DNA of 64,000 nucleotides, taken from assembly GCF_024323335.1 (NCBI RefSeq), contig NC_066580.1:84119391-84183390 (forward strand), in the 5' to 3' direction. The number at the start of each line of letters is the position of its first letter. Positions within the stretch are counted from its first letter, which is position 1. Positions 20,462-48,976 of the stretch are shown in pieces. This stretch comes from Lathyrus oleraceus (Eukaryota > Streptophyta > Magnoliopsida > Fabales > Fabaceae). Below the pieces are notes generated by a model that saw only the letters and a program-made list of their open reading frames with translations, did not search any database and was not told the DNA's origin. Made by a program: the position numbers and the translations under genes.

Positions 20462-23400
20462 ATGGCTGGAAGGAATGACGCTGCAATGGCTGCCGCAATG
20501 CAAGCAATGGCACAAGCGGTGCAGAACTTGCCAAATGCTGGTGGTGATGCTGGGTCACGTAGCTTGGCGACTTTTCAGAGAGAGAATCCGCCGGTGTTTA
20601 AGGGAAAGCATGATCCAGATGCAGCCTTGGGATGGTTGAAAGAGATTGAGAGAATCTTCCGTGTTATGGATTGCACTCCAGCTCAGAAGGTTCGGTATGG
20701 TACTCATATGCTAGCAGTCGAAGCTGATGACTGGTGGCTAGAGACTCACGAGAAGTTGACCGTGGCAGGTGAAGACATTACTTGGGATGTATTCCGTAGG
20801 GAATTTCTGAGAAAGTATTACCCGGAAGATGTCCGTGGTAAGAAGGAAATTGAATTCCTTGAGCTGAAGCAAGGAAACATGTCTGTCACTGATTATGCTG
20901 CGAAATTTGTGGAGTTGTCCAAATTTTATCCTCATTACACTGGCGCTGGTGCTGAATTTTCAATGTGCATCAAGTTTGAAAATGGATTGCGCTCTGAAAT
21001 TAAGAAGGCTGTTGGGTATCAGAAGATACGCATTTTCACTGAATTGGTTGATAGCTGCAGGATATTTGAAGAGGACAATAATGCTCATTACAAGATTGTC
21101 AGTGATCGCAGAGGCAAGCAACATCAAAACCGTGGCAAGCCGTATGATGATCCAGCTGGAAAGGGGAAGCAAAGAGCTGCTCCGGCTCAGAGAGCTAGTG
21201 GGGGAGGTGCTCCTACTGGTATAGTTTGCTTCAAGTATGGTCAGGCTGGTCATAAGAGTAATGTATGCACTGCTGAAGTAAAGAGGTGTTTTCGCTGTGG
21301 TAAGATTGGCCATGCAATAGCTGATTGCAAGCACAAGGAAGTGATTTGTTTTAATTGCGGAGAAGAAGGGCATATTGGAAGTCAGTGTCAGAAGCCGAAG
21401 AAAGGGAATCAGTCAGGAGGCAAGGTCTTTGCTTTATCGGGTTCTGAGACTTCTGCAGATGATCGTTTGATCCGAGGTACGTGTTATATTAATGGCTTTC
21501 CTCTTGTAGCTATTATTGACACAGGTGCGACTCATTCCTTTATATCTTTGGATTGTGCTGTGAAACTTAAGTTAGAGATATCTGAGATGTTTGGTAGTAT
21601 GGTAATTGATACTCCTGCGAAGGGTTCAGTGACTACTACTTCGGTTTGTTTAAATTGTCCTTTGAGTATTTTTGGTAGAGACTTTGGGATGGACCTAGTG
21701 TGTCTTCCACTAGTGCAGATTGATGTTATTCTGGGTATGAACTGGTTGGTGTTTAACCGAGTTTCTATCAATTGTTTTGATAAGACTGTGATATTTCCTG
21801 AGAGTGAGGAAGGAAAGAGTTTGTTTCTATCAGCGAGACAAGTGGATGAGGAAGTAGCTGATGGGGCAGAGTTGTTTATGCTGTTAGCGACTTTGGAGGC
21901 TAAAGATAAACTGATGATTTGCGATCTAGCTGTGGTGTGTGATTTTCCTGATGTGTTTCCGGAAGAAGTAAATGAATTGCCGCCAGAGCGTGAAGTGGAG
22001 TTCTCTATTGACGTGGTACCTGGTACTAGGCCGATATCGATGGCTCCGTACCGTATGTCTGCTGTTGAGTTAACTGAATTGAAGAGTCAGTTGGAAGATC
22101 TATTGGATAAGAAATTTATTCGTCCGAGTGTGTCACCGTGGGGTGCACCAGTGCTATTGGTTAAGAAGAAAGAAGGTACTATGAGGTTGTGTGTGGACTA
22201 CAGACAACTGAATAAAGTGACGATCAAGAATCGGTATCCTTTGCCGAGGATTGATGATTTGATGGATCAGTTGGTTGGTGCAAGTGTGTTCAGTAAAATA
22301 GATTTGAGATCTGGGTATCATCAGATCCGTGTGAAAACTGAAGATATTCAGAAGACTGCTTTCAGGACAAGGTATGGACATTATGAGTATTCTGTAATGC
22401 CTTTTGGTGTGACTAATGCGCCTGGAGTATTTATGGAGTATATGAATAGGATTTTCCATCGGTATCTAGACAAGTTTGTTGTGGTGTTTATTGATGACAT
22501 TTTGGTGTATTCGAAATCTGAAGAAGAGCATGCTGAGCATTTGAGAGTGGTTTTAGAAGTCTTACGAGAAAAGAAGTTATTTGCTAAACTGTCTAAATGT
22601 GAATTTTGGTTAGAAGAGGTGAGTTTTCTTGGTCATGTGATTTCAAGAGGTGGCGTTGCTGTTGATCCTTCTAAGATAGAAGCGGTATCTAAGTGGGAAG
22701 CTCCGAAGTCTGTTGCTGAGATTCGAAGTTTTCTTGGTTTGGCTGGTTATTATAGGAAGTTCATTGAGGGATTTTCTAAGTTGGCGTTACCGTTGACGAT
22801 GTTGACTAGAAAGGGGCAAGCGTTTGTTTGGGACTCAAAATGTGAAGAAGGTTTCCAAGAGCTAAAGAGAAGGTTGACTACTGCTCCTATTCTGATATTA
22901 CCGAGTTCGTCGGAATCATTTGAAGTTTATTGCGATGCTTCATTGTTGGGTTTGGGTGGCGTGTTGATGCAGAATAAGCAGGTTATAGCTTATGCTTCAA
23001 GACAGCTGAGGGTTCATGAGAGGAACTATCCGACGCACGATTTAGAGTTGGCAGCTGTGGTGTTTGTTCTGAAGTTATGGAGACATTACTTGTACGGGTC
23101 AAGATTTGAGGTTTTCAGTGACCACAAAAGTTTAAAGTATTTGTTTGATCAGAAAGAGCTGAATATGAGGCAGAGAAGATGGTTAGAGTTTCTGAAGGAT
23201 TATGACTTTGGGTTGAATTACCATCCGGGTAAAGCAAACGTAGTGGCTGATGCATTGAGTCGGAAATCATTACATATGTCTATGTTAATGGTTAAGGAAT
23301 TGGATTTAATTGAACAGTTTAGAGACTTGAGTTTGGTGTGTGAGAGTACTCACAATAGTGTTAAATTGGGAATGTTGAAGTTGACAAGTGGTATTCTGGA

Positions 23401-24820
23401 TGAGATCAGAGAGGGTCAGAAATCTGATATGCTTTTGGTTGATAAGTTGACTCTAGTGAATCAAGGTCAAGGTGGCGAATTCAGAGTTGATGAGAATGGT
23501 ATTTTGAAGTTTGGTAGTCGGGTGTGTATTCCGGATGTTACCGAACTTAAGAAGAGTATTCTTGAAGAAGGACATCGTAGTGGTCTGAGTATTCATCCTG
23601 GAGCTACGAAGATGTATCATGATTTGAAGAAGTTATTTTGGTGGCCGGGAATGAAAAGAGAAATTGCGAGTTTTGTCTATTCTTGTTTGACTTGTCAGAA
23701 GTCAAAGATTGAGCATCAGAAGCCGTCTGGGCTAATGCAACCGTTGGCTATTCCAGAGTGGAAGTGGGATAGTATCAGTATGGATTTTGTTTCTGGTTTA
23801 CCGAGGACAATTAAGAATTTTGAAGCCATTTGGGTGATTGTTGACAGGTTGACAAAGTCGGCTCATTTCATTCCGATTAGAATGGATTATCCGTTAGAAA
23901 AATTGGCTGAGTTGTATATCGAGAAGATTGTAAGTTTGCATGGTATTCCGTCGAGTATTGTTTCGGACAGAGATCCTAGATTTACATCGAAGTTCTGGGA
24001 AGGTTTGCAGAGAGCTTTGGGAACTAAGCTGAGATTGAGTTCTGCATATCATCCGCAGACTGACGGTCAGACTGAGAGGACGATTCAGTCATTAGAAGAT
24101 CTTTTGAGAGCTTGTGTTTTGGAAAAAGGAGGTGGTTGGGATTGTTATTTACCGTTGATTGAGTTTACCTACAACAATAGTTTTCATTCGAGCATTGGTA
24201 TGGCGCCGTTTGAAGCTTTGTATGGTAGGAGATGTCGGACACCGTTATGTTGGTATGAGTCCGGTGAGAGTGCTGTGGTCGGACCGGAAATTGTCCAACA
24301 AACTACGGAAAAGATTAAGATGATTCAGGAGAAGATGAGAATTGCTCAGAGTCGTCAGAAGAGTTATCATGATAAGAGGAGGAAGTCACTTGAGTTTCAA
24401 GAGGGAGATCATGTGTTTCTTCGTGTTACTCCGATAACAGGTGTTGGTCGAGCTCTGAAGTCAAAGAAGTTGACACCTCGATTTATTGGTCCTTATCAGA
24501 TTTTGGAGAGGATAGGAGAGGTAGCCTATCGTATCGCTTTACCGTCGTCACTTGCGAATTTGCATGAGGTTTTTCATGTGTCTCAGTTGAGGAGGTACAT
24601 TCATGATCCGTCGCATGTGATCCAAGTAGATGATGTACAGGTGAGAGATAACCTGACTGTTGAAACATCGCCTATGAGTATCGAGGATCGAGAGTTGAAG
24701 CAGTTGCGGGGTAAAGAGATTGCCTTAGTGAAGGTAGCTTGGGGAGGACCAGCAGGTGGCAATGTGACTTGGGAACTGGAGAGTCAGATGAAGGAGTCCT
24801 ATCCAGAGTTATTTGTTTGA
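20462..24820 (+). CDS. Gag-Pol polyprotein with chromodomain (Tekay element 1)
   Basis: An unbroken 1452-residue frame. Gag occupies residues 1-310, with three CCHC knuckles near 256, 276 and 295; the first reads [14 protein letters not shown], so its second Cys is Tyr. Then come protease ([12 protein letters not shown] near 352), RT ([11 protein letters not shown] near 643, [13 protein letters not shown] near 677), RNase H ([13 protein letters not shown] near 822), integrase with an HHCC finger near 1045-1085 and catalytic D, D, E in [16 protein letters not shown] and [13 protein letters not shown], and a C-terminal chromodomain ([18 protein letters not shown] near 1422) thought to steer integration to marked chromatin. 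The ATG lies 97 bases after the primer site. Pol is nearly identical to element 2, Gag is not. The mutated first knuckle may weaken RNA packaging. Confidence 0.97.
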
Positions 24821-30016: not shown

Positions 30017-33000
30017 ATGGCTGGAAGAGGTAGAGATGATGCTGCGATTGCTGAGGCTCTGGGTATGCTAGCTGGAGTACTTGGAGGGAATCCGAATGTG
30101 GTGGGAATGGGAGCTGCTCGTCAACTGAGTGAGTTCCAGAAGAACAATCCTCCAATGTTCAAGGGAGCATACGATCCAGATGGTGCTCAGAAGTGGTTGA
30201 AGGAGATTGAGAGGATCTTCCGAGTGACTGAGTGTGCCGAAAACCAGAAGGTCAGGTTCGGTACGCATATGCTGTCAGAGGAAGCAGATGATTGGTGGGT
30301 TGCTACCCGCACTGAGTTGGAATCTGCTGGAAATGCTGAGATCACTTGGGCTGTGTTCAGAGAGAGATTTCTGAGAAAGTATTTTCCAGAGGATGTCAGA
30401 GGAAAGAAAGAGATAGAGTTCTTGGAATTAAAGCAGGGTAACAAGTCTGTTACGGAGTATGCTGCTAAGTTCACAGAGCTGTCAAAGTATTATACTCCCT
30501 ATAATGAGGCTGCTGGAGAATTTTCGAAATGTGTGAAGTTTGAGAACGGGTTGCGTCCTGAGATCAAGCAGGCTATTGGATATCAGCGGATCAGAGTGTT
30601 TTCTGACTTGGTTGACTGTTGCAGGATTTTTGAACAGGATTCCAAAGCCAGAGCAGAGAGCTATCAACAGAGAATTGATAGGAAAGGCAAGAATCAGAAT
30701 GATCGTGGAAAACCGTATGCAGCTGGCAAAGGTTTCCAGAAGCAGAGTGGGATGAAGAGGCCTAGTGGGGGAGACTCTAGCGCCCCTGCTAAGTGTTATA
30801 GATGTGGTCGGGCTGGACATCGTGTCCATGAGTGTACCAGTGCTGAGATGAAGTGTTTCAAGTGTGGAAAAGGTGGTCACTTGGCTGCAGAGTGTCGGTT
30901 GAAGACTATAACTTGTTTCAACTGTGGAGAGTTGGGTCATATCAGTCCACAGTGTCCTAAGCCGAAGAGAGAGAACCAGTCGGGAGGCAAGGTCTTTGCT
31001 TTATCGGGTTCTGAGACTTCTGCAGATGATCGTTTGATCCGAGGTATGTGTTATATTAATGGCTTTCCTCTTGTAGCTATTATTGACACCGGTGCTACTC
31101 ATTCCTTTATATCTTTGGATTGTGCTGTGAAACTTAAGTTAGAGATATCTGAGATGTATGGTAGTGTGGTGATTGATACTCCTGCAAAGGGTTCAGTGAC
31201 TACTACTTCAGTTTGCTTGGGTTGTCCTTTGAGTATTTTTGGTAGAGATTTTGGGATAGACCTTGTGTGTCTTCCACTAGTACAGGTTGATGTTATCCTG
31301 GGTATGAACTGGTTGGTGTTTAACCGAGTCTATATCAACTGTTTTGATAAGACTGTGATTTTTCCTGAGATTGAGGAAGGAAAGAGTTTGTTTCTATCTG
31401 CAAGGCAGGTGAATGAGGAAGTAGCAGATGGGGCAGAGTTGTTTATGCTGTTAGCGACTTTGGAAGCTAAAAATAAACTGGTGATTGGTGATCTAGCCGT
31501 GGTGTGTGATTTTCCTGATGTGTTTCTGGAAGAGGTGAATGAATTGCCACCAGAGCGTGAAGTTGAGTTCTCGATTGATTTAGTACCTGGTACTAGACCG
31601 ATATCGATGGCTCCGTACCGTATGTCTGCTGTTGAGTTAGCTGAATTGAAGAGTCAGCTGGAAGATCTGTTGGATAAGAAATTTATTCGTCCGAGTGTGT
31701 CACCGTGGGGTGCACCAGTGTTATTGGTTAAGAAGAAAGAAGGTACTATGAGATTGTGTGTGGACTACAGGCAACTGAATAAAGTAACGATCAAGAATCG
31801 GTATCCTTTGCCGAGGATTGATGATTTGATGGATCAGTTGGTTGGTGCGAGTGTGTTCAGCAAAATAGATTTGAGGTCGGGATATCATCAGATACGTGTG
31901 AAAACTGAGGATATTCAGAAGACTGCTTTCAGGACAAGGTATGGACATTATGAGTATTCTGTAATGCCTTTTGGTGTGACTAATGCGCCTGGAGTATTTA
32001 TGGAGTATATGAATAGGATTTTCCATCCGTACCTAGATAAGTTTGTTGTGGTGTTTATTGATGACATTTTGGTGTATTCGAAATCTGAAGAAGAGCATGC
32101 TGAGCATTTGAGAGTGGTTTTAGAAGTTCTCCGAGAAAAGAAGTTATTTGCTAAACTCTCTAAATGTGAATTTTGGTTAGAAGAGGTTAGTTTTCTTGGT
32201 CATGTGATTTCAAGAGGTGGTGTTGCTGTTGATCCTTCTAAGATAGAAGCGGTGTCTAAGTGGGAAGCTCCGAAGTCTGTTGCTGAGATTCGAAGTTTTC
32301 TTGGTTTGGCTGGTTATTATAGGAAGTTCATTGAGGGATTTTCTAAGTTGGCGTTACCGTTGACGATGTTGACTAGAAAGGGGCAAGCGTTTGTTTGGGA
32401 TTCAAAATGTGAAGAAGGTTTCCAAGAGTTAAAGAGAAGGTTGACTACTGCTCCTATTCTGATATTACCGAGTCCGTCGGAATCATTTGAGGTTTACTGT
32501 GATGCTTCATTGTTGGGTTTGGGTGGTGTGTTGATGCAGAACAAGCAGGTTATAGCTTATGCTTCGAGACAATTGAGGGTTCATGAGAGGAACTATCCGA
32601 CACACGATTTAGAGTTGGCAGCCGTGGTATTTGTTCTGAAGTTATGGAGGCATTACTTGTACGGGTCAAGATTTGAGGTTTTCAGTGACCATAAAAGTTT
32701 AAAGTATTTGTTTGATCAGAAAGAGCTGAATATGAGACAGAGGAGATGGTTAGAGTTTCTGAAGGATTATGACTTTGGTTTGAATTACCATCCGGGTAAA
32801 GCAAACGTAGTGGCTGATGCATTGAGTCGGAAATCATTGCATATGTCTATGTTAATGGTTAAAGAATTGGATTTAATTGAGCAGTTTAGAGACTTGAGTT
32901 TGGTGTGTGAGAGTACTCACAATAGTGTTAAATTGGGAATGTTGAAGTTAACAAGTGGTATTCTGGATGAGATCAGAGAGGGTCAGAAATCCGATGTGTT

Positions 33001-34387
33001 TTTGGTTGATAAGTTGACTTTATTGAATCAAGGCCAAGGTGGTGAATTCAGAGTTGATGAGAATGGTGTTTTGAAATTTGGTAATCGAGTGTGTATTCCG
33101 GATGTTACCGAACTTAAGAAGAGTATTCTGGAGGAAGGACATCGTAGTGGCTTGAGTATTCATCCTGGAGCTACGAAGATGTATCATGATTTGAAAAAGT
33201 TATTTTGGTGGCCGGGAATGAAAAGAGAAATTGCGAGTTTTGTTTATTCCTGTTTGACTTGTCAGAAGTCAAAGATTGAGCATCAGAAGCCGTCTGGGCT
33301 AATGCAACCGTTGGCTATTCCAGAGTGGAAGTGGGATAGTATCAGTATGGATTTTGTGTCTGGGTTGCCGAGGACAAATAAGAATTTTGAAGCTATTTGG
33401 GTAATTGTTGACAGATTGACAAAATCGGCTCATTTTATTCCGATCAGAATGGATTACCCGTTAGAGAGATTAGCCGAGTTGTATATTGAGAAGATTGTAA
33501 GTTTGCATGGTATTCCGTCGAGTATTGTTTCGGACAGAGATCCTAGATTTACATCGAAGTTTTGGGAAGGTTTGCAGAAGGCTTTGGGAACTAAGCTGAG
33601 ATTGAGTTCTGCATATCATCCGCAGACTGATGGTCAGACTGAGAGGACGATTCAGTCACTAGAGGATCTTTTGAGGGCTTGTGTTTTGGAAAAGGGAGGT
33701 GCTTGGGATTGTCATTTGCCTTTGATTGAGTTTAGCTACAACAATAGTTTTCATTCGAGCATTGGTATGGCACCGTTTGAAGCTTTGTATGGTAGGAGAT
33801 GTCGGACACCTTTATGTTGGTATGAGTCCGGTGAGAGTGCTGTGGTTGGACCGGAGATTGTTCAACAAACTACGGAAAAGATTAAGATGATTCAGGAGAA
33901 GATGAAAATTGCTCAGAGTCGTCAGAAGAGTTATCACGACAAGAGGAGGAAGTCACTTGAGTTCCAAGAGGGAGATCATGTGTTTCTTCGTGTTACTCCA
34001 ATAACTGGTGTTGGTCGAGCTTTGAAGTCAAGGAAGTTGACACCTCGATTTATTGGTCCTTATCAGATTTTGGAGAGGATAGGAGAGGTAGCCTATCGTA
34101 TCGCTTTACCGCCGTCGCTTGCGAATTTGCATGAGGTTTTTCATGTGTCTCAGTTGAGGAGGTACATTCATGATCCGTCGCATGTAGTCCAAGTAGATGA
34201 TGTACAGGTGAGAGATAACCTGACTGTTGAGACATCACCTATGAGGATTGAGGATCGAGAGTTGAAGCAGTTGCGGGGTAAAGAGATTGCCTTGGTGAAG
34301 GTAGCTTGGGGAGGACCAGCAGGTGGCAATGTGACTTGGGAACTGGAGAGTAAGATGAAGGAGTCTTACCCAGAGTTGTTCACTTGA
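30017..34387 (+). CDS. Gag-Pol polyprotein with chromodomain (Tekay element 2)
   Basis: An unbroken 1456-residue frame with the same domain order as element 1. All three Gag knuckles are intact ([42 protein letters not shown]). Protease [19 protein letters not shown], RNase H YCDASLLG, integrase HHCC finger, D-D-E residues and a C-terminal chromodomain are all present. From [10 protein letters not shown] onward it is almost the same protein as element 1, while Gag is clearly diverged. With near-identical LTRs and no visible lesion it is the best candidate for an active element in the window. It could also supply proteins to element 1. Confidence 0.97.
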
Positions 34388-42629: not shown

Positions 42630-42641
42630 CACTACGCCAAA
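42630..42641. repeat. CACTA left terminal inverted repeat
   Basis: CACTACGCCAAA, perfect inverse of 48962-48973, beginning with the diagnostic CACTA. Confidence 0.95.
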
Positions 42642-42651
42642 AACTGGAATA

Positions 42652-43222
42652 GACAGCGCACCTTAGAGGGCGCTTTATTACAAAAGCGCTCTCTAAAGTG
42701 AAGCGAAAAATAAGGAGCAATAGACAGCGCACTTTAGAGGGCGCTTTTGTAACAAAGCGCCCTCTAAGGTGAAGCGAAAAAATAAGGAGGAGATAGAGGG
42801 ACAACAATACATGGCGCTTTTTAGAAAGCGCCCTCTAAGGTTACCCTTAGAGGGCGCTTTTAATAAAGCGCTGTTATAAGTCCATGTGCATTTCCAGCTT
42901 ATAAAGCGCTTCTGGAAAGCCTTAGAGAGCGCTTTCATAAGCGCCCTCTTAGGCCCCCTTTAGAGGGCGCTTTGTTTCCACAAGCGCGCTCTAAGGTGAA
43001 ACGAAAAAATAAGGAGGAGATAGAGGGACAACAATACATGGCGCTTTTTAGAAAGCGCCCTCTAAGGTTACCCTTAGAGGGCGCTTTTAATAAAGCGCTG
43101 TTATAAGTCCATGTGCATTTCCAGCTTATAAAGCGCTTCTGGAAAGCCTTAGAGAGCGCTTTCATAAGCGCCCTCTTAGGCCCCCTTTAGAGGGCGCTTT
43201 TTTTCCACAAGCGCCCTCTAAT
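42652..43222. repeat. CACTA left subterminal repeats
   Basis: Many copies of TTAGAGGGCGCTTT and its inverse AAAGCGCCCTCTAA, often as closely spaced inverted pairs able to form stem-loops. A unit of about 227 bases is directly duplicated (GGAGATAGAGGGACAACAAT at 42788 and 43015). In the superfamily such motifs bind the TNPA-like protein. The short frames on the minus strand here follow the repeats and are not genes. The following 450 bases to 43679 hold a non-coding leader. Confidence 0.9.
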
Positions 43223-43678
43223 GTCCCCTTTAGTAAACATTAAAATTATAACATACTGCGCGTTTTGTTATTTTCGTTCTTTTTCACGTTAGGATTCTAA
43301 GGCGTTTTCCTTCCACCTCTGTTAGATCTACATTATTACTGCACGTTTCCTCCTTCTACCAATCAAAGGTACACGCTTTTCCCAATTTCTGTTTTATGTT
43401 ATTGCTTTGTTTTAGCTTTGCCCAATTTCTGTTTTACATTATTACTGCGCGTTTCCTCCTTCTACGTTTGTTTCGACCATGATAGCGCTTGCAATAGGAA
43501 ATTGACGGTTGGTTTTTAGTGACCATGATAGCGCATGCAATGGGACTACATTACCCAGTAGTTAGGGTTATACGACCTATGAACATATGATTTTGTGTCA
43601 ATACCAGTATCATTAGAAACCTAGGTCCGAATGTGTTTGAACTCTTCTGAAATTGTTTTTTGTTTATTCTAATTAGTA

Positions 43679-46600
43679 ATGGATAATACATGGATGTCTT
43701 CCAATCGATTGTCGAGAGAGTACGAGAATGGGGTATCAGAGTTCGTTAAGTTTGCCGTTGCGCACGCCGAAGACCCCAGTAGAATGATATGTCCTTGCTT
43801 GGGTTGTTGTTATGGGAAACGGGTTGACGCAGTTCAGTTGACATCGCATCTAATGAGGCATGGAATTGATCGAAGTTATACATGTTGGAATTTGCATGGT
43901 GAGAAAAGTAACGAGAATGTTGAATCGGGGGATAGTACGACCTATGCCTCAAACTATAGTGGCGCAGATACATACGATTGTGATCGAGTTGAAGAGATTG
44001 CAGAAGCACTTGAAGGAGATCTTAAGGATTGTCCCGAAATGTTTGAGAGGTTGGTAAGTGATGCAGAGAAACCTTTGTATGATGGTTGCACTAAATTCAC
44101 AAGATTGTCTGCGGTATTAAAGTTGTACAACTTAAAGGCGGGCAATGGGTGGTCGGATAAAAGTTTCACAGAGTTATTAGCCCTTTTGAAAGATATGCTT
44201 CCTGAGGATAATGTTCTTCCCAATTGAACATATGAGACCAAAAATATGTTGTGCTCTATTGGCATGAGCTATGATAAGATACATGCATGTCCAAACGATT
44301 GCGTTTTGTTTCGAAATGAGTATGCATCGTTAAATGAGTGTCCTAAATGTGGTGTCTCGCGATATAAGAACAAGTTGTCTCCAGCAAAAGTCTTGTGATA
44401 TTTTCCTGTTATTCCGAGATTTAGACGCATGTTTCGTAGTGAAACCGATTCAAGACACTTGACCTGGCATGCAGATGAAAGAATTATAGATGGAAAGTAT
44501 CGACATCCGGCAGATTCACCACAGTGGTTGAAAATTGATAATGATTATCCTGAATTTGGAGAAGAATCAAGAAACCTTCGCTTGGCATTATCTACTGATG
44601 GAATGAACCCACACGGTATCCAGAGTATCTCACACAGTACATGGCCTGTGATTATTATGATTTATAACCTACCTCCATGGCTATGTATGAAGCGTAAGTA
44701 CATGATGTTGTCTATGTTGATTTCTGGACCTAAACAACCAGGGAATGACATAGACGTGTACTTGAAGCCCTTAATCGAAGATTTAAAGATTTTGTGGGAG
44801 ACCGGTGTGGAGGTTTATGATGGATATAGGAAAGAAAGTTTCAACTTGAGGGCGATGTTGTTTGGCACAATTAATGATTTTCCAGCATACGGAAATCTAT
44901 CAGGGTATAGCATAAAAGGTCAATGTGCGTGTCCTATTTGTGAAGATAAAACAGATTGGAAGCGCTTGGAGTTTGCTCAGAAGAATGTCTTTCTCGGTCA
45001 TCGGAGATTCTTAAATTCAAATCATCACTACCGTGGATGGAGAAAGGCGTTCAATGGAGAGACAGAACAAGGCAGAGCTCCACCTGTATTGACGGGTGAT
45101 CAAATTTTTGAAAAGGTGAAAGATTTGGATACTCAGTTTGGCAAGCCTTTTGCCCACACACTTGTCAAAAGTGGGTGGAAGAAGAGGTCAGTTTTTTTTT
45201 AAATTGCCGTATTGGAAGTCCTTGTATGTGAGACATTTTCTTGATGTTATGCATATTGAAAAAAATGTATTTGAAAGTGTTATTGGCACGTTACTCAATA
45301 TACAAGGAAAGTCTAAGGATGGCCTTAAGGCAAGAAAGGACTTGATAGCGATGGGAATAAGAACTGAATTAGGACCCTTGAAGAAAGGAAAACGAACATA
45401 TCTACCTCCTGCTGCTTATACTCTATCTAGAAAGGAGAAAAAAACATTGTGTAAGTTTCTAAGTGAAGTTAAAGTTCCAGAAGGGTACTCTTCAGATATT
45501 AGAAGACTTGTGTCTATGAAAGACCTCAAGTTAAAGAGTTTAAAAACCCATGATTGCCATGTTATAATGGAACATTTTCTCCCAATAGGTATACGTTCTA
45601 TTCTTCCAGAAAAAGTAAGAAGCTCTATAACTAAGTTGTGTTCTTTCTTCAAGTCAATTTGCAGTAAGGTGATCAATCCTACGATCTTACCAATGTTGCA
45701 AAAAGAAATCGTTATTACTTTGTGTGAGCTTGAAATGTTTTTTCCTCCATCATTTTTTGACATAATGGTACATCTAGTTGTTCATCTTATGAAAGAGACA
45801 CAATTGTGTGGACCAGCTTATATGAGATGGATGTACCCTGTTGAACGTTATATGAAAATATTAAAAGGGTACGTAAAGAACCGAAGTCGACCAGAAGGTT
45901 GTATGGTTGAAAGATACATTGTTGAAGAAGCGATTGAGTTTTGTACTGAATATTTGTCTAATGTTCAGTCAATCGGACTCCCCAAGTCTCAGCTTGTCGA
46001 AAAGAAAGAAGGAAAAAATCTAATTGGAAATAAAATCGTGGCAGTATCAAGGGTCGAACGGGATCAAGTGCATTTGTATGTTCTGCACAATGAGAATGAG
46101 GTTGAGCCGTATGTTGAAATTCACAAGGATGTTCTCCGAGGTTTAAATCCCAATAGAAATGAAAATTGGATAGTACGAGAGCACAATCGATGTTTTATAC
46201 CTTGGTTTAAGGATCATATTTATTCAAAGTATTATTCAGATCCCGCTTCAATAACAGAAAGGTTGAGATGCTTAGCATATGGTCCAAGTTTCCATGTTTT
46301 TTCTTATAGCGCATACGCGATTAATGGATACACATTTTATACCAAAGAACAAGATGATAAAAGTATTATGCAGAATAGTGGTGTCACCGTGGTAGCTGAA
46401 GCAATGCACATATCAAGTGTGAAGGACTTAAACCCCAAATTTGCAAATTTGTCGTATTTTGGTGTTATCGAGCGCATTTGGGTGTTTGATTATGAGAAGT
46501 TTCAGATTCCTATATTTGGTTGCAAGTGGGTTGAAAATAATAACGGCATTCGAATGGATAAGTCAGGATTTTTGCAAGTGGATCTTAATAGGGTGGGATA

Positions 46601-46904
46601 CAAAGATGAGTCTTTTATTCTAGCCTCTCAAGCTAGACAAGTGTTCTATGTCAATGATCCGAAAAGTACGAAATGGTCTATAGTTCTTTTTTCCAACAAA
46701 GTAATTGATGAAAACACTGGAGATCAAGGTGATATTGATGTTGAGATTGAATCGTTTACCAGAAATGATCAAGATGAGAATATTATATCAAATGATTCAT
46801 ATATTAGAAATGATCATAATGAGGGTATTTGGATCAATCCAACCGTCCGTGTTGTTAAGAGACATGTAGAACATATTCCAACCAAGAAAAGAAAGAGAAC
46901 TTAG
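43679..46904 (+). pseudogene. TNP2-like CACTA transposase, three lesions
   Basis: Domain order matches plant TNP2 transposases: N-terminal transposase-associated domain (MDNTWMSSNRLSREYENGV, CPCLGCC), then the catalytic Transposase_21 region (NLRLALSTDGMNPHG, YNLPPWLCMKRKYMMLSMLI, GPKQPGNDIDVYL, TINDFPAYGNLSGYS, CPICED), a DUF4218-like part (YMRWMYPVERYMKILKGYVK) and a DUF4216-like part (IERIWVFDYEKFQIPIFGCK). Lesions: TGA at 44225-44227, TGA at 44396-44398 where KVLWYFP is expected, and nine T at 45192-45200 where eight keep the frame. Each is a single-base change, so inactivation is recent. No intron is apparent. It would otherwise act in the nucleus on the element ends. Confidence 0.92.
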
Positions 46905-47027
46905 TGAAAAAGGTACATGTCAAATGATTTTAATTGTTTTCTTTATTACAGGTAAAATGACTTTTATGATTTTAATTGTTTTTACATTTGTCATCTGATT
47001 TTAATTGTTTTCTTTATTACAGGTAAA

Positions 47028-47115
47028 ATGGCTATTATGAAGTCAATCATTCGTGCAAGAGACAAGGGTGTAAAATTTGAAGTACATTGGAGTGCTGAAG
47101 ACCAACTAATTTTTT
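47028..47115 (+). pseudogene. Start of CACTA accessory (TNPA/Transposase_24-like) gene
   Basis: From the ATG at 47028: [20 protein letters not shown] then WSAEDQLI, which resembles the opening of the second protein of plant CACTA elements (similar K-I--AR-KG---V-W---Q-I starts). The similarity stops at about 47115, where ARGONAUTE intron sequence begins. Upstream, ATTTTAATTGTTTTCTTTAT occurs twice (about 46927 and 46999), each copy ending in TTACAG|GTAAAATG, so the gene may have had an upstream splice acceptor. Confidence 0.5.
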
Positions 47116-47862
47116 TTCATCAGGCTTGTGTCTCAATAGAGGATGGGTATCTACCTAAAGTTACTTTTGTAGTGGTCCAAAAGAGACATCACACCCGTCT
47201 CTTTCCTGTCAACCCCAAAGAGACCGATAGAAGTGGAAATATTATGCCAGGTTTTTTCAATATATTTCTCAACGCAGCTGGTATATATTATCATTTGAAT
47301 TTATCACTTTTTGCTGATTTTGTTGTTCTAAATTGTCAAAGGAACCGTGGTAGACACCAGCATTTGTCACCCTAGGGAATTTGATTTTTACCTTAACAAC
47401 CATGCAGGAATTCAGGTAATATTAGCTATGTCATTTAACTTTATGCCATTGTTTACTATTTGTTGCTCAATCGCCTTTTGACAGTTCTGTGTTATTTGCA
47501 TTTGGACGTGTTCTTTTTGCAGGGGACTAGTCGACCAACGCATTATCATGTGCTGTATGATGAAAATAAATTCACTGCAGACCAGCTACAGAGTTTGACC
47601 AATAACTTGTGCTACACGTAATGATATGATTTGCTTTTTTAATCTTAATTAATGTTTTCTAAACTTGTACTGTTTTCATTTAATTTTAGAAGCCTTCTGA
47701 TACTATTTTTTTCCATTCAGTTATGCGAGGTGTACTCGATCTGTCTCAATAGGTTTGTTACTCGATTCCCTTTGCTTGTTTTTGTTTTAGGCTATACAAA
47801 ACTTTAGTTTAACAAAAATGTTATCTTGTATGCAGTTCCTCCTGCCTATTATGCACACTTGC
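47116..47862 (+). pseudogene. AGO: Captured ARGONAUTE PIWI-domain fragment with introns
   Basis: Five exon pieces with GT-AG borders read as plant Argonaute PIWI: 47124-47250 ([36 protein letters not shown]), 47342-47415 ([20 protein letters not shown]), 47523-47617 ([32 protein letters not shown]), 47721-47752 (YARCTRSVSI) and 47836-47862 (VPPAYYAHL). The His in HYHVL is the last residue of the DEDH slicer tetrad. Wording is nearest the AGO1/5/10 clade, with an AGO5-like TADQLQ. Intact introns mean genomic DNA, not a processed transcript, was captured. Similarity stops after YYAHL. With less than half of PIWI and no PAZ or MID it cannot act as Argonaute; it could give rise to small RNAs against the parent gene. 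Confidence 0.93.
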
Positions 47863-47921
47863 TATTATTCACCATGGGTGGATGGGCGTTATTTTGTTTA
47901 GTATTGGTTAGAACTACTAGA

Positions 47922-48255
47922 CAGCTTTTGGATACAGTGGTCACTGGGTGTTGGTTGCTATGGATCTTTCGAGACTAATAGTGTATTATCTCGATTCGTT
48001 ATCGGGTGATTGGAGTAAATATCCGAGTATGAAGAAGACGGTTGACGCGTAAGTGAAATTCCCCTAAATATTCGTGTGTATTTGTATATTTAATTATGTC
48101 TGTCAGATATTTCATCTAATTTGTTACTAAATCATGAATATGTTTTATTCTCTTAATTGTAGTACTTTGAGGAATACAAATCTTACTCAAGAGCTCATTT
48201 GGATGAAATGAAGGATGAATTGTGTCAATTCATTGTTGATCAAAGAATCATATAG
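47922..48255 (+). pseudogene. Ulp1-like (C48) protease remnant of CACTA accessory gene
   Basis: The frame AFGYSGHWVLVAMDLSRLIV then YYLDSLSGDWSKYPSMKKTV contains the His (GHW) and Asp (YLDSL) region of Ulp1/SENP-type cysteine proteases, a common C-terminal part of plant CACTA accessory proteins. A donor-like GC|GTAAGT at 48048 ends it. A last exon at 48163-48255 reads YFEEYKSYSRAHLDEMKDEL then CQFIVDQRII and a stop. The segment with the catalytic Cys is missing between them. Together with 47028-47115 this brackets the ARGONAUTE insert. Confidence 0.7.
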
Positions 48256-48587
48256 CTAGGTTGTATATTGTTGTACATATATGTATGGAATGTTGTTGTT
48301 GTATGCTGTTGTTGTATATATGTTGTATATTGTTGTTGTACTTTTACTAAATCATGAATATGTTGTTGTATATTGTTGATCAAAGAATCATATATTAATG
48401 TTGTATATATGGAGGATTAATGTTGTATATAAATGGATTCATGTTGTATATATCAATGGATTAATGGTGTATAACATTGGATTAAAGGATGAAATCAATA
48501 TGAATTTTACACTTTTGCAGCATTCAAAGAGGTTACCAATTAAATATCCACTGTTTTTCAAACAAATTTTTTTAAAATAACTAACAC
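48256..48587. other. AT-rich CACTA 3' untranslated region
   Basis: Contains scattered repeats of TTGTATATTGTTG and TTAATGTTGTATAT; no reading frame of interest. It separates the last Ulp1 exon from the subterminal repeats. Confidence 0.6.
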
Positions 48588-48961
48588 TTTAGAGGGCGCT
48601 TTTTCCTGAAAGCGCCCTCTAAACACTTTACATTGACAACTTTAGAGGGCGCTTTTTCCTGAAAGCGCCCTCTAAACACTTTACATTGACAACTTTAGAG
48701 GGCGCTTTTTCCTGAAAGCGCCCTCTAAACACTTTACATTGACAACTTTAGAGGGCGCTTTTTCCAGAAAGCGCCCTCTAAGGTGTCCCTGTATGGACCA
48801 CTCCAGAGGGCGCTTTTTTCTGAAAGCGCACTATAATGTGGCCACTTTAGACAGCGCTTTCTCCAGGAAAACAAAGCGTTGTCTTTACCTATGCCAGCGC
48901 CACTTTAGAGGGCGCTTAAAAGCGCTGTTATAGGCCAAAATAAGCGCCCTCTTTTCCCTTA
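48588..48961. repeat. CACTA right subterminal repeats
   Basis: Four direct copies of a 52-53-bp unit start near 48588, 48640, 48692 and 48745, each containing the stem-loop TTAGAGGGCGCTTTTT...GAAAGCGCCCTCTAA. Diverged copies follow to 48961. Same core motif as the left end. Confidence 0.92.
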
Positions 48962-48973
48962 TTTGGCGTAGTG
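48962..48973. repeat. CACTA right terminal inverted repeat
   Basis: TTTGGCGTAGTG, inverse of the left end, followed by target copy AAA. Confidence 0.95.
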
Positions 48974-48976
48974 AAA

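What the first reader, a model, noticed from the sequence alone, without database searches (positions are those of the whole stretch)
47028..48255. A CACTA transposon carries an ARGONAUTE PIWI fragment, introns included, inside its accessory gene
Five exon pieces with canonical splice borders read as Argonaute PIWI, including the tetrad His (HYHVL) and RCTRSVSI...VPPAYYAHL. They are bracketed by the start of a CACTA accessory protein ([14 protein letters not shown]) and a Ulp1-like remnant (GHWVLVAM, YYLDSL). Retained introns show capture of genomic DNA. CACTA elements are known to capture genes; a piece of the silencing machinery is striking because small RNAs from it could act on the parent AGO gene and so weaken silencing of the transposon. 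The regulatory idea is inference.
Basis: partly seen in the sequence, partly recalled or inferred. Interest (0 to 1): 0.88.

Follow-up and report, generated by a model that had tools for sequence, protein, structure and literature searches.

The report
Pea transposon carrying a stolen ARGONAUTE5 piece
A DNA transposon in the pea genome has picked up the tail end of the plant's own ARGONAUTE5 gene, introns included, and copied it to about 700 places, which is notable because ARGONAUTE proteins belong to the machinery that silences transposons, although no effect on that gene has been shown.

Summary
The window lies in a 3.8-Gb pea genome. 42630-48973 is a TIR-bounded CACTA element with a 3-bp target-site duplication, and its accessory gene contains five ARGONAUTE exons with GT-AG introns (121 aa; PIWI E 2.4e-48).

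I found the parent gene: the intact-looking AGO5 gene on C7 (L043; 99% to the annotated "protein argonaute 5"). The longest copies read (L040, L042) hold about 1.28 kb of AGO5 genomic DNA at about 97%, from an intron through the natural stop codon into the 3' flank. It sits where AGO5-free relatives encode the middle of the accessory protein. The window copy is an internally deleted derivative with a 188-aa chimeric reading frame; a near-identical copy is publicly annotated as "argonaute 5".

A 44-nt diagnostic pattern occurs 717 times genome-wide; 84 places besides AGO5 keep the natural AGO5 end. C-to-T excess at CG and CHG sites suggests methylation. Of 477 21-mers in the captured AGO5 coding part, 215 are perfect in the window, so small RNAs could match AGO5. 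No hairpin was found, and no small-RNA or expression data were available.

Best reading: a transduplicated AGO5 fragment, amplified as a passenger, with a testable but unproven anti-silencing role. Nearest precedent: rice CACTA/miR820-DRM2.

The parts
42630..48973 (+). Complete CACTA element, 6,344 bp
   Evidence: TIRs at both ends and 3-bp duplication AAA/AAA
42627..42629 (.). Target-site duplication AAA, left
   Evidence: read
48974..48976 (.). Target-site duplication AAA, right
   Evidence: read
42630..42641 (+). Left terminal inverted repeat CACTACGCCAAA
48962..48973 (-). Right terminal inverted repeat (TTTGGCGTAGTG on + strand)
42659..43218 (.). Left subterminal repeats (GAGGGCGC / GCGCCCTC units)
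48584..48951 (.). Right subterminal repeats
43679..44227 (+). Transposase gene, first piece: Transpos_assoc (PF13963)
   Evidence: E 5.3e-19; frame interrupted in the window copy
44429..45202 (+). Transposase gene, second piece: Transposase_21 (PF02992)
   Evidence: E 5.1e-94
45138..46904 (+). Transposase gene, third piece: DUF4218 and DUF4216
   Evidence: E 1.1e-41 and 4.1e-20
47028..47978 (+). Chimeric accessory/AGO5 gene, 5 exons, 188-aa frame
   Evidence: 98% identical over its whole length to annotated P0121 'argonaute 5 [Lathyrus oleraceus]'
47028..47111 (+). Start of the transposon's own accessory protein ([28 protein letters not shown])
   Evidence: matches the longer N-terminus in L042 and in AGO5-free pea proteins
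47107..47864 (+). Captured AGO5 genomic DNA, left piece: intron tail, 4 whole exons, 4 introns and the start of the last exon
   Evidence: 97.4% to L043 (AGO5), 758-column alignment; its first bases overlap the accessory part, where the join is ambiguous
47870..47937 (+). Captured AGO5 genomic DNA, right piece: 3' flank of AGO5 after an internal deletion
   Evidence: 97.1% to L043, 69-column alignment
47939..48049 (+). Ulp1-like (Peptidase_C48) remnant GHWVLVAM...YYLDSL, out of frame with the chimera and without the Cys exon
   Evidence: E 0.02 alone; fuller His-Asp-Cys stretch in L042
48163..48255 (+). Last exon of the accessory gene (FEEYKSYSRAHLDEMKDELCQFIVDQRII)

Best explanation
A CACTA transposon of pea carries, in place of the middle of its accessory gene (between the N-terminus and the Ulp1-like protease end), a roughly 1.3-kb genomic fragment of the host AGO5 gene. 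The fragment runs from an intron, through the last five exons and the natural stop codon, into the 3' flank (shown). The recombinant element multiplied and shed parts by internal deletion. The window copy is one such derivative, in which the accessory start reads straight into AGO5 exons that could still be spliced (shown as sequence; splicing predicted). About 700 places carry the piece today (shown). The host has probably methylated them (inferred from a C-to-T excess). The piece cannot work as an Argonaute because it lacks PAZ, MID and the first catalytic residues. It most likely spreads as a passenger, while giving the silencing system hundreds of templates for small RNAs that match AGO5. 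Whether these touch AGO5 is unknown; I put a measurable effect at about one in four (inference).
For: TIRs and 3-bp duplications: perfect in 5 of 5 copies with both ends in view (window AAA, L040 ATT, L041 ATA, L042 CCT, L048 CAG). Parent: L043 on C7 carries a whole AGO gene (22 exon pieces, 984 aa), 99% to P0001 'protein argonaute 5 [Lathyrus oleraceus]'. Captured extent: L042 4444-5725 = L043 4588-5864 (reverse strand), 1,285 columns, 96.9%. Exonic differences are 5 of 497 and non-coding 18 of 779. AGO5-free relatives: P0241 and P0243 have both the accessory N-terminus and the Ulp1 part without AGO; P0250 and P0253 run on into PF03004 (Transposase_24, name recalled). Copy number: 717 hits to a 44-nt intron pattern, 0 in the reversed control; 156 with the window-type deletion junction; 85 with the natural AGO5 end, one of them AGO5 itself. 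C>T excess over 83.6 kb of 26 copies: CG 35/3474, CHG 45/3890, CHH 75/22096; T>C 45/54154.
Against: No AGO5-free DNA copy was fetched, so the empty site is inferred from annotated proteins. Within the AGO5 segment alone the C>T rate at CG (3 of 693) is no higher than at CHH (26 of 5936); only CHG stands out (16 of 1528), so methylation of that part is less clear. The piece keeps near-perfect identity in the copies read, which could mean function, though recent amplification explains it as well. The exact donor could be an AGO5 allele or paralogue: at the 5' breakpoint L049 on C3 matches the element better than L043 does.
Confidence: 0.82

Rival explanations
1. Anti-silencing device: small RNAs made from the AGO5 segment in hundreds of copies lower AGO5 mRNA, weakening silencing where AGO5 acts, and the element gained copies because of this.
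For: 215 of 477 21-mers of the captured AGO5 coding part are perfect in the window, 322 of 477 in at least one fetched copy, 0 of 477 in 19 other loci with AGO matches (whole window and loci, both strands). High recent copy number. Rice CACTA elements carry miR820, derived from DRM2, and lower DRM2 (PMC3459959, passages).
Against: None of the 25 longest of 65 inverted repeats touches the segment and Rfam finds no family at its thresholds. The segment is in sense orientation, so antisense RNA would need another step. AGO5 looks intact. No small-RNA data.
Confidence: 0.15
2. Camouflage or epigenetic conflict: carrying a piece of a needed host gene makes heavy methylation costly to the host, because siRNAs would spill onto AGO5, so the element is silenced less.
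For: The review PMC13317346 describes this conflict for captured genes in maize (passages). The identity to AGO5 needed for spill-over is present. In the AGO5 segment CG scars are not raised over CHH (small numbers).
Against: Over the rest of the element CG and CHG C-to-T changes are three times the CHH rate, so copies have probably been methylated. Legume AGO5 matters for nodulation (PMC5748670, abstract), but nothing shows that it is essential in pea.
Confidence: 0.12
3. Chimeric protein: the 188-aa product is made and acts as a dominant-negative PIWI fragment or a new accessory protein.
For: Open spliced frame. Near-identical proteins are annotated (P0121; P0140 and P0141 with other ends). 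A LOC-style model, P0314 'isoform X1', joins an accessory exon to the AGO5 exon.
Against: Only Piwi positions 177-293 of 302 are present, with a frameshifted tail. Annotation is not proof of translation, and P0314 and P0141 read on into an unspliced AGO5 intron. The copies read differ in the deletions they carry.
Confidence: 0.05
4. Assembly artefact or a mis-joined AGO5 gene.
For: None found.
Against: 717 places, different flanks in nearly all copies read (L019 and L020 look alike), and a matching protein (P0122) from a contig length that is none of the seven large contigs here.
Confidence: 0.01

Closest known systems
Rice CACTA elements carrying pre-miR820, derived from and targeting OsDRM2 (PMC3459959, passages)
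   Same: CACTA superfamily. The captured piece comes from a gene of the silencing machinery and includes intron sequence. Amplified with the transposon.
   Different: There the piece forms a miRNA precursor with a shown effect on DRM2. Here it is a roughly 1.3-kb sense fragment of AGO5 without a detected hairpin, at about 700 places rather than the five copies in Nipponbare or at least 18 in the BB genome reported there, and with no effect shown.
Pack-CACTA / Pack-TYPE elements (PMC8903248 and review PMC13317346, passages)
   Same: Host gene fragment between CACTA TIRs, spread to new places (transduplication).
   Different: Pack-TYPE elements are non-autonomous. The window copy still holds a (broken) transposase gene and the fragment lies inside the element's own accessory gene. 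L040 and L042 fit the Pack-TYPE picture better.
Soybean CACTA with captured gene fragments and chimeric splicing (Zabala and Vodkin 2007, seen only as a reference in PMC13317346)
   Same: Legume CACTA element with captured gene fragments (title).
   Different: From recall: other host genes, not silencing genes, and low copy number.
hAT-borne histone H3 in Pseudocercospora fijiensis (PMC6710886, passages)
   Different: Fungus, histone gene, copies inactivated by RIP.

Membership tests
CACTA superfamily | TIRs beginning CACTA | tested here: met
   both ends
CACTA superfamily | 3-bp target-site duplication | tested here: met
   5 of 5 copies with both ends visible; in four further loci the left end lay outside the fetched stretch or was not found
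CACTA superfamily | tnp2-type transposase with associated domain | tested here: met
CACTA superfamily | subterminal repeats | tested here: met
Pack-TYPE (Pack-CACTA) | captured coding-gene DNA between the TIRs | tested here: met
Pack-TYPE (Pack-CACTA) | no transposase gene of its own | tested here: not met
   the window copy holds transposase pieces; L040 and L042 have TIRs and AGO5 but no match to the window's transposase part
miR820-like transposon miRNA against a silencing gene | fragment of a silencing gene inside a CACTA element | tested here: met
miR820-like transposon miRNA against a silencing gene | miRNA hairpin precursor | tested here: not met
   no inverted repeat in the segment among the 25 longest of 65; no Rfam match at gathering thresholds
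miR820-like transposon miRNA against a silencing gene | small RNA that cuts or lowers the parent gene | not testable with these tools
   no small-RNA or RNA-seq data
Functional Argonaute | PAZ, MID and complete PIWI with catalytic DEDH | tested here: not met
   only Piwi 177-293 of 302; the two Asp motifs (recalled) lie upstream of the captured part in L043

The most novel reading that the evidence does not exclude
The pea CACTA family owes part of its success to the AGO5 piece. Small RNAs from several hundred near-identical copies cut or silence the host AGO5, weakening reproductive or nodule silencing. AGO5 itself may be drifting away from the element: the AGO5 residue C in 'LQCLTNN' is derived, because the element and the Vicia and Trifolium AGO5 proteins have S (one site).
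Probability: 0.12. Interest if true: 0.92.

Novelty: new member of a known kind. Interest (0 to 1): 0.64.

Why it matters
Transposons that carry a piece of the host silencing machinery are test cases for the arms race between genome and parasite. Here the parent gene is known, the shared 21-mers can be computed, and copy number is very high in a crop, so pea small-RNA, degradome and methylome data could decide whether the piece acts on AGO5. It is also a practical warning: a near-identical transposon piece and a partial one are annotated as 'argonaute 5' in pea, which would inflate gene-family counts and mislead read mapping to AGO5.

Tried and rejected
Chance match: rejected. Assembly error: rejected. 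Parent among other AGO loci: 11 other loci with AGO matches align with the piece only in separate stretches of 36-140 bp, each about one exon, at 68-83%, so rejected in favour of L043. L049 on C3 looked like a second donor. Its place has AGO5 upstream sequence at 98-99%, but further on L049 matches AGO5 only in broken pieces, so I treat it as a damaged AGO5 piece. Its 5' breakpoint letters match the element better than L043's, so an older AGO5 allele as donor is open. miRNA hairpin: not found.

Not obtained: the total number of family members by TIR and an AGO5-free DNA copy. The three searches meant for this did not complete (the first again in 94 and 96, the second again in 97). The search for the natural AGO5 end was unanswered 14 times and then answered.

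Bias: the copies L010-L028 were picked as the best matches to the window, so their low divergence understates the spread of the family. The eight others (L036, L038-L042, L045, L048) came from the Piwi list. One search left out L040, L042, the subterminal repeats and columns with under 5 copies or under 70% agreement, and counts a change shared by several copies once per copy. L019 and L020 have near-identical flanks and may be one locus.

Not in print: library searches listed no paper whose title or shown abstract reports an Argonaute piece in a CACTA element. Of the papers listed I saw passages of PMC13317346, PMC8903248, PMC6710886, PMC7140803, PMC10760457, PMC8616336 and PMC5639751, none of which reports it; the one pea paper (PMC7140803) mentions CACTA only for soybean. 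The rest I saw as listings. The library lacks most subscription papers.

Full report
What is there. The window is G000:C2:84119391-84183390 of a 3.795-Gb genome whose contigs C1-C7 are 464-653 Mb long. Protein records from contigs of exactly these lengths are named Lathyrus oleraceus / Pisum sativum, so this is pea. At 42630-48973 lies a CACTA element: left end CACTACGCCAAA, right end TTTGGCGTAGTG, flanked by AAA on both sides, with GAGGGCGC-type subterminal repeats. Its transposase region holds Transpos_assoc, Transposase_21, DUF4218 and DUF4216, with the frame interrupted. In 6 of 6 copies read, the window included, the frame does not run to the end (which allows for no introns).

The Argonaute piece. 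The spliced piece of 121 aa matches Piwi at E 2.4e-48, positions 177-293 of 302, and plant AGO10 at E 4.5e-62. It keeps the HYHVL histidine motif, which I recall as the last residue of the catalytic tetrad. The Asp motifs (GADVTHP, RDGVSEGQF; named from recall) lie upstream of the captured part in the parent. In the window, five exons with four GT-AG introns give an open frame of 188 aa that starts with 28 residues of the transposon's own accessory protein and ends in a frameshifted tail.

The parent. A Piwi search of the genome gave 137 places (130 of 1815 candidates scored) and a PAZ search gave 17. One locus had both a PAZ exon and a near-identical copy of the piece with its introns: L043 on C7. 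It holds a complete AGO gene; joining 22 exon pieces gives 984 aa, 99% identical to the annotated 'protein argonaute 5 [Lathyrus oleraceus]', P0001, and 86-87% to Vicia AGO5. Nineteen other loci holding AGO matches share no 21-mer with the captured coding part. Against the majority of 28 copies, L043 differs by substitution at 5 of 497 exonic and 18 of 779 non-coding positions; two of the five exonic changes alter the protein.

Extent of the capture. In L042 and L040 the shared stretch is about 1.28 kb (1,285-column alignments) at 96.7-96.9%. It begins inside the intron before the ACVSIEDG exon and passes the natural stop (...ENVKEVMFYC) into the 3' flank. On either side lies the transposon's accessory gene: an N-terminal part before, and a Ulp1-like end with GHWVLVAM, YYLDSL and CPQQNNSVDCG after. 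AGO5-free pea proteins show the normal gene: P0241 and P0243 have both the N-terminus and the Ulp1 part, P0250 and P0253 run from the N-terminus into PF03004 (P0253 also DUF8039), and P0257 and P0258 carry the Ulp1 end. So the AGO5 DNA stands in place of the middle of this gene. This is inferred from annotated proteins; no AGO5-free DNA copy was fetched.

How the window copy arose. Compared with L042, the window copy lacks the accessory exons and intron start upstream (joined at ...CTAATT), lacks the AGO5 C-terminus, stop and most of the 3' flank (joined after CACTTGCTA), and lacks the Ulp1 Cys exon. The left deletion made an in-frame join of accessory start and AGO5 exon. Other copies show other deletions.

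Scale and age. A 44-nt intron pattern that differs from L043 at two positions is found 717 times with at most one mismatch (355 + 362), and 0 times in the reversed control. The window-type junction occurs 156 times (79 + 77). The natural AGO5 end occurs 85 times (34 + 51, up to two mismatches, control 0), one of them AGO5 itself at C7:312311758 and two others L042 and L040. So 84 places besides AGO5 keep that end; I did not check each for its TIRs. A DNA search scored 40 of 786 candidates, and all 40 cover the whole 755-bp query at 100% after rounding. The right TIR and flank were read in 19 of 20 loci L009-L028 (L009 is the window itself; not found in L024); L019 and L020 look like one locus. 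Copies differ from the majority by 0.1-0.61%. With a recalled rate of about 1.3e-8 per site and year this is a few hundred thousand years, and the 2.3% non-coding difference to AGO5 suggests capture about a million years ago. Both are rough.

Silencing marks. Over 83,614 bases of 26 copies, C-to-T changes are at 1.01% of CG (35 of 3474), 1.16% of CHG (45 of 3890) and 0.34% of CHH (75 of 22096) positions, against 0.08% T-to-C (45 of 54154); transversions are 102. This is the pattern expected from methylation in CG and CHG; changes shared by copies are counted once per copy. In the AGO5 segment alone (28 copies) the picture is weaker: CG 3 of 693, CHG 16 of 1528, CHH 26 of 5936, T-to-C 3 of 14384, so CG is not raised over CHH there.

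Could it act on AGO5? Of 477 21-mers in the captured AGO5 coding part, 215 are perfect in the window and 322 in at least one fetched copy. Against a miRNA: none of the 25 longest of 65 inverted repeats touches the segment, and Rfam gives 0 matches at its thresholds. The segment is in sense orientation to the element's genes, so antisense small RNAs would need an RNA-dependent polymerase or transcription from outside (inference). One coding difference could be polarised: pea AGO5 has C where the element and the AGO5 of Vicia villosa, V. faba and Trifolium repens have S. So the host gene changed, not the element; one site proves nothing.

Expression hints. P0121, a 188-aa protein annotated 'argonaute 5', is 98% identical to the predicted chimera. 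P0314, named 'LOC127085189 isoform X1', joins an accessory exon (...GKEKIWSEIQ) to the AGO5 exon (ACVSIEDG...) and then reads on into the next AGO5 intron. Names of this style come from automatic annotation that uses transcripts (recalled). They hint at transcription but do not show it. P0122 comes from a contig of 563,422,397 bases, which is none of C1-C7 here, so another pea assembly probably holds the piece too. Of 120 hits listed (914 found) I read four sequences: all are pea, and three carry the accessory start.

Known relatives. In rice, CACTA elements carry pre-miR820, derived from DRM2 exon and intron sequence, and miR820 lowers DRM2 (PMC3459959, passages). Pack-CACTA elements capture gene fragments (PMC8903248, passages). 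A 2026 review describes captured genes as siRNA sources and a cause of conflict, and has no occurrence of 'argonaute' in its main text (PMC13317346, passages). A fungal hAT element amplified histone H3 to hundreds of copies (PMC6710886, passages). Lowering AGO5 in bean and soybean reduces nodulation (PMC5748670, abstract). My searches listed no report of an Argonaute piece in a CACTA element.

Verdict. The capture is secure. The regulatory role is a fair, unproven hypothesis that pea small-RNA data could settle.

Noticed in passing
L049 (C3:295395500-295397600) and C3:295393053-295393557: A second, broken AGO5 piece on C3 with 98-99% identity to AGO5 sequence upstream of the captured part, perhaps another mobile-element capture.
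   Followed up: partly
G000 C5:152011171, C6:130880086, C6:152349785, C2:395526551, C5:6379147, C7:409310362: A further repeated AGO fragment (Piwi positions 134-199, in four of these six with 47-147 beside it) at several places with identical or similar scores; possibly another captured AGO gene.
   Followed up: no
G000 C7:69130161, C5:91549887, C4:467999612 and others: About eleven places 70-81% similar to the AGO5 exon-intron region upstream of the captured part; perhaps older AGO5 fragments.
   Followed up: no
window 20462-24820 and 30017-34387: Two long gag-pol reading frames (1452 and 1456 aa), similar by eye, in direct orientation with starts about 9.5 kb apart; retrotransposons.
   Followed up: no
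P0121, P0140, P0141, P0122: Transposon-borne AGO5 chimeras are listed in public annotation as pea 'argonaute 5' (P0121, P0141 partial) or as hypothetical or unnamed proteins, a likely source of error in AGO gene counts.
   Followed up: partly
L040 and L042: Shorter family members (about 4.4 kb between TIRs) without a match to the window's transposase part but with the longest AGO5 piece read and a fuller Ulp1 end.
   Followed up: partly
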